Virus record (IMG/VR): IMGVR_UViG_3300021963_004854
Coordinates: 107,567-171,566 of that record
Strand: one strand, 5' to 3'
Length of the DNA: 64,000 nucleotides
From: a virus
Part shown: positions 15,698 to 47,747 of the stretch, piece after piece
Numbering within the stretch: position 1 is the first letter of the stretch
Layout of the letters: each line of letters begins with the position of its first letter
Notes under the pieces: generated by a model
Told to the model about the DNA's origin: nothing
What the model saw: the letters and a program-made list of their open reading frames with translations, nothing else
Database searches by the model: none
Position numbers and translations under genes: made by a program

Positions 15698-16127
15698 TAG
15701 TTCCACTGAAAGAGTAGGCATTACAGCCAGTTGCTTTGACCTGTTCCACGCGGGTCATGTTCTTATGCTACAGGAAGCTAAAGAACAGTGCGACCGATTG
15801 GTAGTAGCATTACAGACTGACCCAACGATTGACCGACCAGAGAAGAACAAGCCCGTTCAATCTCTGGTAGAACGGTATATTCAGTTGCAAGCATGTAAGT
15901 ATGTGGACGAAATCATTCCATACACGACAGAAGAAGACTTGCTAAATATACTACAATGTTATGACTGGGATGTTCGCATTATTGGCGAAGATTATTACAA
16001 TAAGCGATTTACTGGTGACGAACTAGGAATCGAAGTTTATTACAATAGTCGCAGGCATAGCTTTAGCACTACTGAATTGAGAAGGAGAATTGGCGATGGC
16101 AACAAGATTACCACCAAAGAAGTTTAA
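15687..16127 (+). CDS. Cytidylyltransferase-like nucleotidyltransferase
   Basis: 146 residues, overlapping the RNase H end. HxGH motif in FDLFHAGHVLMLQEA and a C-terminal FSTTELRRRI equivalent to the ISTT motif of glycerol-3-phosphate cytidylyltransferases (TagD type). It would transfer CMP or AMP to a small phosphorylated substrate. The substrate in the phage is unknown. Confidence 0.87.
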   Translation: MNFNSSTERVGITASCFDLFHAGHVLMLQEAKEQCDRLVVALQTDPTIDRPEKNKPVQSLVERYIQLQACKYVDEIIPYTTEEDLLNILQCYDWDVRIIGEDYYNKRFTGDELGIEVYYNSRRHSFSTTELRRRIGDGNKITTKEV

Positions 16128-16608
16128 ACAAATTGATCAGGCTCTAGATTGGGCGACCGAAGTCAAGGACATTGATGAACTACGGGAACGAGTTCGTGCA
16201 ATCTCCACTGGTAACTCCGTTCTTATGCGTTTCTTGGCATGGGGCGTAGGCTACGAACAGGGACCTCACAAACTACCAGAGGGTAGAACACCGACTAAGA
16301 ACGAAGAACTACCTGTTGATATGGGTGATACTAATATCACGCAAGAGTTCCGTAGACTTCTAACTCTACTACCGGGTGGCAGTGCAGACCGAGTTCCTCA
16401 GTGGCGCCGCGAAGAAATCTGGATGCAGATTTGTCAGGGTGTTCACCAGAACGAAGCTAAATTGCTGGATTCTGTAAAAGACCAGAAAATACTCGATTTG
16501 TATCCTTCTTTGGCAGATGTTCTTGAAACTTTTCTTGTTGGTTGGAAAAAGCCCGAGGTTAAGAAGAAGAAGGTGTCAAAAAAGCCCGCGAGTATCTCCG
16601 AGGAATAA
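16096..16608 (+). CDS. Conserved phage hypothetical protein (DUF6433-like)
   Basis: 172 residues, ATG 16096 with AGGAG 8 nt upstream. LMRFLAWGVGYEQGPHKLPEG and MQICQGVHQNEAKLLDSVK resemble a family found in T4-like phages; function unknown, family label tentative. Lys-rich tail. Its last codons (16591-16600) are complementary to the speD ribosome-binding site, see the leader entry. Confidence 0.75.
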   Translation: MATRLPPKKFKQIDQALDWATEVKDIDELRERVRAISTGNSVLMRFLAWGVGYEQGPHKLPEGRTPTKNEELPVDMGDTNITQEFRRLLTLLPGGSADRVPQWRREEIWMQICQGVHQNEAKLLDSVKDQKILDLYPSLADVLETFLVGWKKPEVKKKKVSKKPASISEE

Positions 16609-16724
16609 TTAAATTATTCGTAAGAGAACAGAAGATACCCATAAAATGGGGTGTTAAGCGACCTTGGGGTCTGTAATTAAAACACTAATAAATAACTGTT
16701 CTCGAACTTTCAAACGGAGATACT
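16591..16724 (+). promoter_or_regulatory. Nested RNA structure masking the speD ribosome-binding site
   Basis: Outer helix: 16591-16600 (AGTATCTCCG) is perfectly complementary to 16715-16724 (CGGAGATACT), which contains the speD Shine-Dalgarno GGAG. Inside: GAGAACAG 16624-16631 pairs with CTGTTCTC 16696-16703; CCCAT/ATGGG hairpin 16638-16650; GTGTT 16651-16655 pairs with AACAC 16681-16685; GACC/GGTC hairpin 16660-16671. All five helices are mutually compatible. The anti-SD strand lies in the last codons of the upstream gene, so ribosomes finishing that gene would open it. This could be a riboswitch or translational coupling; I recognise no known class. Confidence 0.6.
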
Positions 16725-16727
16725 TTG

Positions 16728-17132
16728 ATGGGCGCAATTCTGGAACATAAGCATCTAATCATTCGTGCAGAACTTAAAAATCCGCCTAAGTGCGCGGAAG
16801 CAATTCAAGACTGGATGAAAATCTTGGTCGATAAAATTGGAATGAAGATACTTATGGGCCCATATGCGATTTACTCGGATATGGTAGGCAATCAAGGGTT
16901 GACAGCGGTTACAATTATTGAAACCAGCCATATTGCTATGCATGTATGGGATGAAGTTGACCCTGCATTGATGCAGCTGGACGTTTACACTTGCTCTACT
17001 CTGAATATTGATGATGTATTTCTGGCACTTAGCGATTTTGCACCTGTTAATGTTCAATTCAAATATATTGATCGGGAACATGACTTGACATTGCTAGATA
17101 AAGGTGTTATAAGTGAGATACTTCCTCTTTAA
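16728..17132 (+). CDS. speD: S-adenosylmethionine decarboxylase proenzyme
   Basis: 134 residues, length of the bacterial/archaeal class Ib enzyme. Makes decarboxylated SAM for spermidine synthesis. ETSHIAMHVWDE contains the Ser that becomes the pyruvoyl group (the residue before it is Thr rather than the usual Glu) and the catalytic His; LDVYTCS holds the proton-donor Cys. Phage polyamine enzymes may help neutralise packaged DNA. The GGAG at 16716 is predicted to be sequestered in the leader structure. ATG 16728 chosen over TTG 16725. Confidence 0.88.
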   Translation: MGAILEHKHLIIRAELKNPPKCAEAIQDWMKILVDKIGMKILMGPYAIYSDMVGNQGLTAVTIIETSHIAMHVWDEVDPALMQLDVYTCSTLNIDDVFLALSDFAPVNVQFKYIDREHDLTLLDKGVISEILPL

Positions 17133-17619
17133 ACACAAGAACGAAATCTGGTTAGTCAAAAATCCTGAACAAGTTCCAAAGCCTAGAGAGTTATTGCTTC
17201 AAAACTCTAATATTGAATATATAAGAGATAAAGCAAATTCTTTAGGAAAAGGCTTGACATTTCGTGATAAAGTTAGTAGAAAGAAGATACCGGCTTTAAC
17301 GACAGAACATAAAGCAAAAATTGCTCTAGCGTTAAGTGGTAGCAACAACCCCAACTGGGGTGGCTTGAAAGAAGAAACCAAAGCCAAAATTCGTCGCAAG
17401 ATGCGAGGAACAAGGCGCAATGAAAACAATCCTATGTATGGCAGACGCCAATCATGGGAAACTCGCAATCTCATAGCGATGAAGGCGAGACATAGAAGAC
17501 GAAAGTGGTGTGTCGACCCAAGCGGTAAAACGCATTTGGTAGACCCACTTACTTTCATACTACCTTCTGGCTGGATGTGGGGAAGATTTTACGACCCATA
17601 TCGACCAGAAGATTTTTAA
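17113..17619 (+). CDS. NUMOD3-motif nuclease-associated protein
   Basis: 168 residues from GTG 17113 (AAAGG upstream), overlapping the speD end. The middle (SGSNNPNWGGLKEETKAKI and RGTRRNENNPMYGRRQS) carries two NUMOD3-type DNA-binding repeats typical of homing endonucleases. No GIY-YIG or HNH catalytic core is visible. The C-terminus WCVDPSGKTHLVDPLTFILP occurs in other phage NUMOD proteins. Probably a DNA-binding remnant of a mobile endonuclease. Confidence 0.7.
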   Translation: MRYFLFKHKNEIWLVKNPEQVPKPRELLLQNSNIEYIRDKANSLGKGLTFRDKVSRKKIPALTTEHKAKIALALSGSNNPNWGGLKEETKAKIRRKMRGTRRNENNPMYGRRQSWETRNLIAMKARHRRRKWCVDPSGKTHLVDPLTFILPSGWMWGRFYDPYRPEDF

Positions 17620-20726: not shown

Positions 20727-20802
20727 GGACGATTAGCTCAGTCGGTAGAGCGCGGGACTCTTAATCCTTAGGTCGTAGGTTCGAATCCTACATCGTCTAC
20801 CA
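20727..20802 (+). tRNA. tRNA-Lys(CUU)
   Basis: Acceptor GGACGAT/ATCGTCT, anticodon loop CTCTTAA, T-loop TTCGAAT, CCA encoded. One mismatch at the base of the anticodon stem. Confidence 0.9.
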
Positions 20803-20808
20803 TTTCAC

Positions 20809-20884
20809 GGACACTTAGCTCAGTAGGTAGAGCAACGGGCTTTTAACCTGTAGGTCCTGGGTTCGAACCCCAGAGTGTCCACCA
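20809..20884 (+). tRNA. tRNA-Lys(UUU)
   Basis: Acceptor GGACACT/AGTGTCC, anticodon stem ACGGG/CCTGT with loop CTTTTAA, T-loop TTCGAAC, CCA encoded. Confidence 0.94.
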
Positions 20885-23288: not shown

Positions 23289-24238
23289 ATAAGAAATGGC
23301 GGTATAGCGTCATTAGGGTAACCTTCGGCAACGAAGGCCAAAGCAGGGACTCCTACGTACCTGCGCCGGTAACGGTCCATCTATACAAGCCCAGGTAAGG
23401 GTTGTCTCGGCCATGGCCGTAAGCAATCCCCGTCAGTAGAATGGCGGTAGGCAGTAAGTGAGTGATATAAGTCCGAAAGGATATGAACAGAGCCAGTCGG
23501 TGAGTTCTAATAGACTGTGGTGGTCTAGCTGTATCGAACCAAACTCGCGAATGCTGAAAAACTAATGGGTAATCGCTGAGTCTGATCTAGCAAGAAAAGG
23601 CAAAGCGGTAGCACAATAGTTGAACCGATGAGGGGAGACTAGAAGTGCGGTTGATTAGTCCGCAAGACGAAAGACATGAGGAGTGTTGTATTTTGTATCT
23701 AACAAGATACGAAGCAACTGGAGCAGCACTTCTTGGTAGGTTCGCAAATTGCTTAATGGTAAAGCAACTGACTCTTAATCAGTAGATTCTAGGTTCAAAT
23801 CCTAGTTTGTAACAAAAAGCGAAAGTCTGCTCCAGTGCTATGTGAAAGGTGCTTAATACCTAACACGGAAGTGAATTGGGTTCACGGATTCCCGCAAGGA
23901 TGAAGTGATTGATCCGAGTGAAGACGTAGCGGTTTAGCGACTGCGAACAGCTTGCAAGGCTGGCGGAAGAACGAAGGTCGAATAGCATAGCATGATAAGT
24001 GATAAGCCACACTTCAAAAAAGGCAGCACTGAGGAATACTAGATGACCAGCGATGGCTCTAGTGGATAACGAGTTAACACTTCTCGCAAGGAAGTCGGTA
24101 CGGCTCAAAGGTCCTCAACTAAAAGCAGTAATCTCATGCTTTACAAAGACTTATTAGATGAACACATCAAACCCACTGGGCGGCAGGTCGACTTAATGCT
24201 GCGATAGCGGTCCCTGGTGTGTTCTTCTAATAAGTTTT
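23289..24238 (+). ncRNA. Candidate large ornate RNA (about 950 nt) with embedded tRNA-like module
   Basis: Nearly 1 kb without a convincing gene on either strand but dense in helices and GNRA loops: CCTTCG-GCAA-CGAAGG (23322-23337), CCG-GTAA-CGG (23366-23375), GCAGG/CCTGC (23343/23360), TCC-GAAA-GGA (about 23472), GTATCT-AACA-AGATAC (23695-23710). ACTGGAGCAG (23717-23726)/CTGCTCCAGT (23827-23836) encloses a tRNA-like cloverleaf. GCTATG (23837)/CATAGC (23986) closes another domain. The 3' end is a long stem 24146-24166/24218-24238 touching tRNA-Ala. Size, tRNA neighbourhood and tRNA insert recall GOLLD and ROOL RNAs, but I cannot confirm membership. Confidence 0.6.
23742..23812 (+). tRNA. tRNA-Lys(CUU)-like module inside the large RNA
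   Basis: D-arm GCTT/AAGC, anticodon arm ACTGA/TCAGT with loop CTCTTAA, T-arm CTAGG/CCTAG with loop TTCAAAT are all perfect. The acceptor TCGCAAA/TTTGTAA has one mismatch and is followed by CAAA instead of CCA. It is enclosed by a 10-bp stem (23717-23726/23827-23836). May be a functional tRNA needing CCA addition, a pseudogene, or a structural module. Confidence 0.6.
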
Positions 24239-46449: not shown

Positions 46450-47747
46450 GATATAAATGGATTAATCAGCTAAACGAGTCCGATAGCCGCCTGCACAAGG
46501 AAGATGTTCTTGCGCGGGCATTGGCTGCAGGTGACCATGTGTTCCTGAACGGCATTCGTAACTGCTACAACCCATACATTACCTTTGGCGTGAAGCAGAT
46601 TCCATCGACGGAGGGCATCACAGGTGCACCGAACCCGTATGAGGACTTTGATGAACTGCTTGCCAAGCTGGCCGCTCGACAGTTGACTGGCCACGCAGCC
46701 AGGGATGCCATCCTTGGTATGTCCCTCAAGTTTGATAGTGATGAGTGGAATCTGTTCCTTGCTCCTATCTTGCGCCGTGATATGCGGGCAGGCTTTAGTG
46801 ATAGAACTATCAATAAGGTATGCAAGGGTACCGAATATGTAATTCCCACCTTTGGTTGCCAGCTGGCTGCTAACAGCGAGGGTCGACCAGAGATGGTAGG
46901 TACCAAGTGGCTTGAGCCTAAGCTGGATGGTGCCCGTGTGTTGCTAGTTGTTTCGGATGACAATACGGCCACTTGCTACAGCCGCAACGGCAAGGTGTTC
47001 GATAACTTCCCACATGTGGAACAACAGGTCCTAAGTAATGTGTATGCTATACGCACCTACCTTCGTATCAAGGGCGGCTTCGTGCTTGACGGCGAGATTA
47101 TGGGCAAGTCCTTCCAAGACCTGATGCGTCAAGCACAGCGCAAGGAGAACGTCCAGACGCAGGACACCGTGTTCAATGTGTTTGACATTCTGCCTCTTGA
47201 GGACTTCAAGCGTGGCTTCTGGAATGCCCAGTTGCGCAAGCGCCTTGCTATCCTATCCGATATGCAGCCTGTATTTGATGCGATGCCCAACGTTACGCGG
47301 GTCGATAGCCAGATTGTGGTAGACCTCAGCACCGAAGAAGGCCGCACCAAGCTCCACGAGTATGCTACCGAGATGGTAACCGCTGGCTTTGAAGGTATCA
47401 TGATTAAAGACATGGAAGCACCGTATGAGTGTAAGCGCAACACCTTCTGGATGAAGTGGAAGCCTGTTATCACCGTCGATCTCCCCGTCATTGGCCTAGA
47501 AGAAGGCACTGGTCGTAACAAGGGTCGTCTAGGCGCTCTGGTGTGTCGTGGTGTTGACCATAGCAAGGAGATTAGTGTCAACGTGGGTAGTGGCTTTAGT
47601 GACACCGAGCGTGACCTATTCTGGAAGCAACAGGAATTAATCGTTGGTCGCACAGCCGAAATCTTGTGCGATGTTATAACTCAGAACCAAGACGGTACCT
47701 ATTCACTGAGGTTTCCACGGTTCGTTCGATGGAGGGATGACAAGTGA
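46446..47747 (+). CDS. ATP-dependent DNA ligase (T4-type)
   Basis: 433 residues. Adenylation Lys in LEPKLDGARVLLV (about residue 160), motif III VLDGEIMG, motif IV FEGIMIKD, motif V FWMKWKP, C-terminal OB-fold. N-terminal domain of the T4 gp30 type, slightly short. Joins Okazaki fragments after RNase H. Confidence 0.93.
   Translation: MRYKWINQLNESDSRLHKEDVLARALAAGDHVFLNGIRNCYNPYITFGVKQIPSTEGITGAPNPYEDFDELLAKLAARQLTGHAARDAILGMSLKFDSDEWNLFLAPILRRDMRAGFSDRTINKVCKGTEYVIPTFGCQLAANSEGRPEMVGTKWLEPKLDGARVLLVVSDDNTATCYSRNGKVFDNFPHVEQQVLSNVYAIRTYLRIKGGFVLDGEIMGKSFQDLMRQAQRKENVQTQDTVFNVFDILPLEDFKRGFWNAQLRKRLAILSDMQPVFDAMPNVTRVDSQIVVDLSTEEGRTKLHEYATEMVTAGFEGIMIKDMEAPYECKRNTFWMKWKPVITVDLPVIGLEEGTGRNKGRLGALVCRGVDHSKEISVNVGSGFSDTERDLFWKQQELIVGRTAEILCDVITQNQDGTYSLRFPRFVRWRDDK

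What the first reader, a model, noticed from the sequence alone, without database searches (positions are those of the whole stretch)
16591..16724. Candidate riboswitch or translational switch in front of speD
The speD ribosome site is in a perfect 10-bp helix with the last codons of the upstream gene, enclosing four more compatible helices (8-bp P1 and three inner stems). This arrangement can hide or expose the SD. speD makes decarboxylated SAM, so SAM, spermidine or upstream translation are candidate signals. I know no speD-linked riboswitch in phages.
Basis: seen in the sequence. Interest (0 to 1): 0.8.

Follow-up and report, generated by a model that had tools for sequence, protein, structure and literature searches.

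The report
Frameshift signal overlapping speD start
What looked like a riboswitch in front of a phage polyamine gene is mostly the hidden second half of the preceding gene, reached when ribosomes slip back one letter, and the RNA helix that probably promotes the slip also covers the start site of the polyamine gene.

Summary
The helices are real: fold z = -4.7, and the 10-bp helix pairs 16591-16600 with the speD ribosome site 16715-16724. The riboswitch reading is not supported. The "leader" codes for protein. Six nt before the helix lies A AAA AAG (16578-16584) in exact register for -1 frameshifting, and the -1 frame runs through the supposed leader to a stop at 16674-16676, extending the upstream DUF6433 protein by 30 residues ending ...KWGVKRPWGL. 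All 53 distinct relative genes keep A AAA AAR in phase. The tail evolves as protein in the -1 frame only (pN/pS 0.35; other frames 1.35-1.65; 0/2000 shuffles as low). Distant DUF6433 proteins carry a WG.R tail in the normal frame, without a slippery site. A T4-type late promoter (AATAAATA, 16687-16694; 33 of 34 distinct relatives) lies inside the structure, and the genome encodes gp55 and gp33. Late mRNAs would therefore lack the 5' arm and free the speD site, as for T4 gene e and I-TevI. There is no covariation, because the arms hardly vary. Best reading: a -1 frameshift signal whose long-range stimulatory helix doubles as a timing lock on speD. No step has been shown by experiment.

The parts
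16096..16608 (+). DUF6433 gene, 0-frame product 170 aa; predicted fold like the DNA-binding domain of T4 DNA ligase, with a disordered Lys-rich C-terminus
   Evidence: PF20025 E 1.5e-14; AlphaFold pLDDT 85, residues 156-170 disordered; VIA Z 11 to ligase DNA-binding domains
16578..16584 (+). slippery heptamer A AAA AAG (codons TCA AAA AAG in the 0 frame)
   Evidence: Read directly. A AAA AAR in phase in all 53 distinct relative genes, although the preceding residue is S, P, A or L and other Lys codons are 72% AAG. Only X XXY YYZ site with a -1 extension found in the window's ORFs of 100 aa or more
16584..16676 (+). -1 frame extension AREYLRGIIKLFVREQKIPIKWGVKRPWGL*, including the stop codon at 16674-16676
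   Evidence: Open frame with no ATG/GTG/TTG start; pN/pS 0.35 in this frame only; conserved WG[VI]K tail in relatives
16590..16600 (+). 5' arm of the long helix, beginning 5-6 nt after the heptamer: proposed frameshift stimulator
   Evidence: the usual spacing for stimulators is 5-8 nt (PMC4066793)
16715..16725 (+). 3' arm of the long helix; contains the speD Shine-Dalgarno GGAG (16716-16719)
   Evidence: predicted accessibility
16624..16703 (+). inner 8-bp helix 16624-16631 / 16696-16703; only partly conserved
   Evidence: 80% of cells paired, no change on both sides
16687..16694 (+). T4-type late-promoter-like AATAAATA; predicted start about 16700, downstream of the 5' arms
   Evidence: NATAAATA at -38 to -42 in 33 of 34 distinct speD upstream regions; gp55 and gp33 homologues in the genome; TATAAATA-N-ATG 16 forward against 1 in the reversed-pattern control
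16728..17132 (+). speD, S-adenosylmethionine decarboxylase family, ATG at 16728
   Evidence: PF02675 E 1.4e-12; Pelagibacter phage SpeD up to 55% identical

Best explanation
The segment is a -1 programmed ribosomal frameshift signal at the end of the DUF6433 gene, overlapped by the start region of speD. Ribosomes reaching TC A AAA AAG either continue in frame and stop at 16606-16608 (170 aa), or slip to AAA AAA and read 30 more codons, adding the tail ...KWGVKRPWGL (193 aa). The helix 16590-16600/16715-16725 starts 5-6 nt past the heptamer, where a stimulator is expected. Its distal arm is the speD Shine-Dalgarno, so on transcripts reading through from DUF6433 the same helix keeps speD closed except while ribosomes open the 5' arm. 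Late in infection, gp55-dependent transcription from AATAAATA at 16687-16694 would start near 16700, omit both 5' arms, and yield a short speD mRNA with an open site. Supported by sequence evidence: the helix, the in-phase heptamer, protein-level selection on the -1 frame, and the conserved promoter motif. Inferred: that slipping occurs and how often, that the helix stimulates it, the late start site, and the timing of speD.
For: Heptamer A AAA AAR in phase in 53 of 53 distinct genes, with 0-frame codons that vary around it. The -1 tail has pN/pS 0.35-0.38 against 1.35 and 1.65 in the other frames, 0 of 2000 column shuffles as low. All 38 distinct -1 products have the WG.K tail, or WAKKRPWGI in L009. 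The window has no start codon in the -1 frame ahead of the tail. Distant DUF6433 proteins end in frame in WG[GDN]RS or close variants, with no A AAA AAR heptamer. The stem position after the heptamer is paired at 0.98-1.00 in most of the window's clade; L009 has a local hairpin instead, and clade B has CCGCUCU/AGAGCGG 6 nt after the heptamer. A_AAA_AAG is among the three most efficient E. coli motifs and stimulators usually start 5-8 nt downstream (PMC4066793). Late-promoter motif in 33 of 34 distinct speD upstream regions; gp55 E 4e-20 and gp33 E 6e-14. SD accessibility 0.0002 read-through against 0.36 late; mean over 33 relatives 0.22 against 0.56.
Against: No frameshift product has been observed. 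The helix shows no covariation, and its 5' arm codes in two frames, which alone could keep it unchanged. Clades C and D share the heptamer and tail but show no significant stem after it, so a stem is not essential to the system. Clade C tails give pN/pS 0.83, not significant. Clade B pairing is only suggestive (3-10 of 100 shuffles as high) and clade B speD is not locked in read-through mRNA. The late motif in this clade is AATAAATA, not the T4 consensus TATAAATA, and AATAAATA/TATAAATA is not enriched within the window. The phage carries tRNA-Lys(CUU) genes, expected to reduce slipping on AAG. A loop of about 115 nt is long for a stimulator.
Confidence: 0.72

Rival explanations
1. T4-type temporal lock only: the helix exists to keep speD silent on early or middle read-through mRNA until the internal late promoter fires. 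The -1 frame is expressed, but the helix has no role in it.
For: The T4 genes e, soc, 49 and I-TevI work this way (PMC3014915 and PMC2988022). Some clade D relatives use a different local 9-bp hairpin (GUUCUUUCC/GGAAGGAAC) with TATAAATA placed so that late starts fall inside the 5' arm. Clades C and D have the heptamer but no clear stem after it.
Against: Does not explain why the arm starts exactly 5-6 nt after the heptamer, nor the replacement stem in L009 after the 5' arm was lost.
Confidence: 0.3
2. Frameshift stimulator only: the pairing with the speD SD is incidental, and speD is expressed from late mRNA regardless.
For: Replacement stems at a similar spacing in L009 and clade B, where speD is not the partner.
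Against: The RBS sequence itself differs in clade B, where the DUF6433 arm is not upstream of speD. SD closure is extreme against shuffled upstream sequence (0 of 300).
Confidence: 0.25
3. The tail is reached by transcriptional slippage on the A6-A7 run rather than by ribosomal slipping.
For: Slippage on A runs is known in bacteria (PMC5009743, cites runs of 9).
Against: The run is only A6 plus G in 34 of 53 genes. Strict heptamer phase (A AAA AAR) and a downstream stem fit ribosomal slipping better.
Confidence: 0.07
4. SAM, dcSAM or spermidine riboswitch.
For: Position before speD; stable branched fold.
Against: No Rfam match at E 10. The region is protein-coding in the -1 frame. Inner helices are 65-80% paired without covariation. 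Clades B and D keep speD but not this structure.
Confidence: 0.03

Closest known systems
-1 programmed frameshifting at A AAA AAG (E. coli dnaX; IS3-family elements such as IS911)
   Same: Same heptamer in phase; structure 5-6 nt downstream; IS911 also uses a branched stimulator (PMC5009743).
   Different: New gene family (DUF6433). The stimulator candidate is a long-range helix whose far arm is the RBS of the next gene. No conserved internal SD at the dnaX/IS911 spacing was identified by eye.
T4 late-promoter/sequestered-RBS switch (genes e, soc, 49, I-TevI, segB; Aeh1 mobE)
   Same: SD in a helix on long transcripts; internal late promoter whose mRNA lacks the 5' arm (PMC3014915, PMC2988022).
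   Different: The target is a metabolic gene (speD); the 5' arm lies about 115 nt upstream, inside a coding region; the leader is decoded in the -1 frame.
Lambda G/GT-type tail assembly chaperone frameshift
   Same: Phage gene with a C-terminal extension by -1 slip.
   Different: Not next to a tape-measure gene; the fold is like a ligase DNA-binding domain; the extension is 30 aa.

Membership tests
-1 programmed ribosomal frameshift | X XXY YYZ heptamer in phase, conserved beyond codon usage | tested here: met
   53 of 53 distinct genes A AAA AAR; other Lys codons 506 AAG against 201 AAA
-1 programmed ribosomal frameshift | -1 frame under protein-level selection | tested here: met
   pN/pS 0.35, 0 of 2000 shuffles as low in the window's clade; not significant in clade C
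-1 programmed ribosomal frameshift | stimulatory structure 5-8 nt downstream | tested here: inconclusive
   Present in the window's clade and L009, suggestive in clade B, not evident in clades C and D
-1 programmed ribosomal frameshift | both products made in vivo | not testable with these tools
   Needs a reporter or mass spectrometry
T4-type late-promoter / hidden-RBS switch | SD paired on long transcripts, freed on transcripts from the internal late promoter | tested here: met
   Predicted accessibility 0.0002 against 0.36; prediction only
T4-type late-promoter / hidden-RBS switch | late promoter motif and phage late transcription factors | tested here: met
   33 of 34 distinct upstream regions; gp55 and gp33; the motif is AATAAATA in this clade
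T4-type late-promoter / hidden-RBS switch | mapped late start and stage-dependent translation | not testable with these tools
   Needs 5'-end mapping during infection
SAM-type riboswitch | match to a known aptamer | tested here: not met
   No Rfam hit at E 10
SAM-type riboswitch | conserved, covarying non-coding aptamer | tested here: not met
   Coding region; no covariation
Lambda G/GT-type tail assembly chaperone | adjacent to the tape-measure gene | tested here: not met
   Neighbours are T4 RNase H-like exonuclease, cytidylyltransferase, speD and a NUMOD3 protein

The most novel reading that the evidence does not exclude
One long-range RNA helix serves two genes at once: its 5' arm sets the frameshift rate on DUF6433, its 3' arm is the speD ribosome site, and an internal late promoter releases speD. 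DUF6433 tail production and SpeD synthesis are thereby coupled on early mRNA and uncoupled late, perhaps tuned by the phage's own tRNA-Lys(CUU).
Probability: 0.35. Interest if true: 0.78.

Novelty: new variant of a known kind. Interest (0 to 1): 0.6.

Why it matters
It predicts an unrecognised second product for an uncharacterised family found in hundreds of marine T4-like phages: related phages carry a WG tail in frame, while this lineage reaches it by slipping, so a natural comparison of regulated against constitutive tail exists. If the helix does double duty, it is a compact case in which a recoding stimulator and a translation lock on the next gene are the same RNA. It also warns that stable "leaders" in compact phage genomes can be hidden coding sequence.

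Tried and rejected
Metabolite riboswitch: Rfam at gathering score and at E 10 gave nothing. Separately started small ORF: no ATG/GTG/TTG in the -1 frame before the tail in the window. Covariation support: none, because the outer helix barely varies and the inner helices fail. Tail homologues in sequenced phages by tblastn: one hit at E 10, meaningless. Solved-structure sequence search for DUF6433: nothing. The sliding-clamp Pfam search rang nowhere, including its controls, so it is uninformative. Clade B is too similar for a selection test. Literature: no paper holds DUF6433; no paper on frameshifting in cyanophages matched this gene. Terminator scan: no intrinsic terminator on the + strand between DUF6433 and speD.

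Full report
Setting. The window is part of a 171,566-base IMG/VR virus record. The phage is T4-like in its late transcription: a gp55 homologue (E 4e-20), a gp33 homologue (E 6e-14), and TATAAATA upstream of ATG in 16 forward places against 1 for the reversed pattern. The finding lies between a DUF6433 gene (16096-16608; PF20025, E 1.5e-14) and speD (ATG 16728; PF02675, E 1.4e-12).

Observation. The 10-bp helix 16591-16600/16715-16724 and the inner stems are present. The 146-nt fold has z -4.74 with 0 of 200 shuffles as stable. A match of 10 bp or more to the 16-nt RBS arises in 3 of 2000 upstream shuffles. So the structure is beyond chance.

It is not a leader. Reading relatives shows that the "intergenic" part is an open reading frame in the -1 frame of DUF6433. 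The heptamer A AAA AAG at 16578-16584 lies in 0-frame phase TC[A AAA AAG]. After a -1 slip the frame reads KK-AREYLRGIIKLFVREQKIPIKWGVKRPWGL and stops at 16674-16676. In a scan of the window's ORFs of 100 aa or more, this was the only X XXY YYZ site (second triplet AAA or TTT) with a -1 extension more than 30 nt past the normal stop.

Evidence for the frameshift. (a) All 53 distinct relative genes have AAA as the first slip codon and AAA or AAG as the second, and the codon before always ends in A (TCA, CCA, GCA, CTA), although 72% of other Lys codons are AAG and 43% of other four-fold S/A/P/T codons end in A. (b) In the window's clade the tail beyond the 0-frame stop has pN/pS 0.35-0.38 in the -1 frame and 1.65 and 1.35 in the others; 0 of 2000 column shuffles are as low. 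(c) All 38 distinct -1 products keep a WG[VIK]K tail, or WAKKRPWGI in L009. (d) The window's -1 frame has no ATG, GTG or TTG ahead of the tail; its previous stop is 15 nt before the heptamer. (e) Distant DUF6433 proteins from cyanophages and IMG/VR end in frame in WG[GDN]RS or close variants (WGLRG, WGLHRGT, WGSRGPE), without an A AAA AAR heptamer; L263 is an exception that lacks the motif. That the two tails are homologous is an inference; they share position and motif only. Clade C tails do not show significant selection (0.83) and clade B is too uniform to test.

Stimulator. The helix begins 5-6 nt after the heptamer; stimulators usually start 5-8 nt downstream and A_AAA_AAG is among the three most efficient motifs in E. 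coli (PMC4066793). In the window's clade the positions +6 to +12 are paired with probability 0.98-1.00 in most members, with 0 of 100 shuffles as high; L005 and L092 are weaker (12 and 4 of 100). In L009, which lost the 5' arm, a local hairpin takes its place. In clade B, where another gene separates DUF6433 from speD, CCGCUCU/AGAGCGG starts 6 nt after the heptamer, though with modest significance (3-10 of 100). Clades C and D show no significant stem. The role as stimulator is therefore likely for this clade, not proven.

Conservation of helices. Over 13 sequences the outer helix is 95% paired, the inner ones 78, 80 and 65%, with no excess of paired changes over shuffles. The outer arms hardly vary: the 5' arm codes in two frames and the 3' arm is the RBS.

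speD control. NATAAATA stands at -38 to -42 from the speD ATG in 33 of 34 distinct upstream regions, whatever gene lies upstream. Taking the T4 spacing (my assumption), late mRNA would start near 16700 and lack both 5' arms. Predicted SD accessibility is 0.0002 on read-through RNA and 0.36 on late RNA; with shuffled upstream sequence it averages 0.35 and never falls as low in 300 trials. Across 33 relatives the means are 0.22 and 0.56; clade B is an exception without a lock, and L039, L050 and L079 use a different 9-bp hairpin. This is the arrangement described for T4 e, soc, 49 and I-TevI (PMC3014915; PMC2988022). Masking a ribosome at the slip site or the 0-frame stop frees the SD in silico, whereas a ribosome in the tail or at the -1 stop does not, so translation of DUF6433 should open the lock only briefly.

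DUF6433. The predicted structure (pLDDT 85, residues 156-170 disordered) resembles the DNA-binding domain of phage and other ATP-dependent DNA ligases: VIA Z 10.9-11.2 for the T4 and Pmar ligases, and the first 36 rows are all ligases, with unrelated rows at Z about 2; the Foldseek E-values themselves are weak (0.35). Helical folds can score high by chance, so this is a lead. The slip site lies in the disordered tail.

Clade labels used here: A = window-like loci with DUF6433 directly before speD (for example L002, L004, L005, L017, L031); B = L007, L010, L021, L024 and similar, with another gene in between; C = L047, L063, L065, L069, L075, L128; D = L038/L056, L039, L058, L061, L078, L122 and similar, in which the -1 frame runs into speD.

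Verdict. The helix is real, but the riboswitch reading fails. The best account is a -1 frameshift signal overlapping a T4-type late-released speD start. Novelty lies in the gene family and in one helix apparently serving both.

Noticed in passing
16096-16608: DUF6433, a family of unknown function, has a predicted fold like the DNA-binding domain of T4 DNA ligase, here free-standing (VIA Z 11); a full ligase (PF01068) lies elsewhere, about window 46893-47462.
   Followed up: partly
20727-20802, 20809-20884, 23742-23813: Two tRNA-Lys(CUU) genes and one tRNA-Lys(UUU); the CUU species would be expected to reduce slipping on A AAA AAG (PMC4066793).
   Followed up: no
23678-24140: GOLLD RNA (187 bits) with a tRNA-Lys(CUU) inside it, within a cluster of 24 tRNA genes.
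   Followed up: no
L039, L050, L079 upstream of speD: A 9-bp hairpin GUUCUUUCC/GGAAGGAAC covers the speD SD, with TATAAATA placed so that late starts fall inside its 5' arm; a second, unrelated lock on the same gene.
   Followed up: partly
17113-17619: NUMOD3 / homing-endonuclease-like gene overlapping the end of speD.
   Followed up: no
L038, L039, L058 and similar (clade D), start of speD: In several relatives the -1 frame of DUF6433 runs across the late promoter and into the first codons of speD (tails ending WGKFLSINI and similar).
   Followed up: partly
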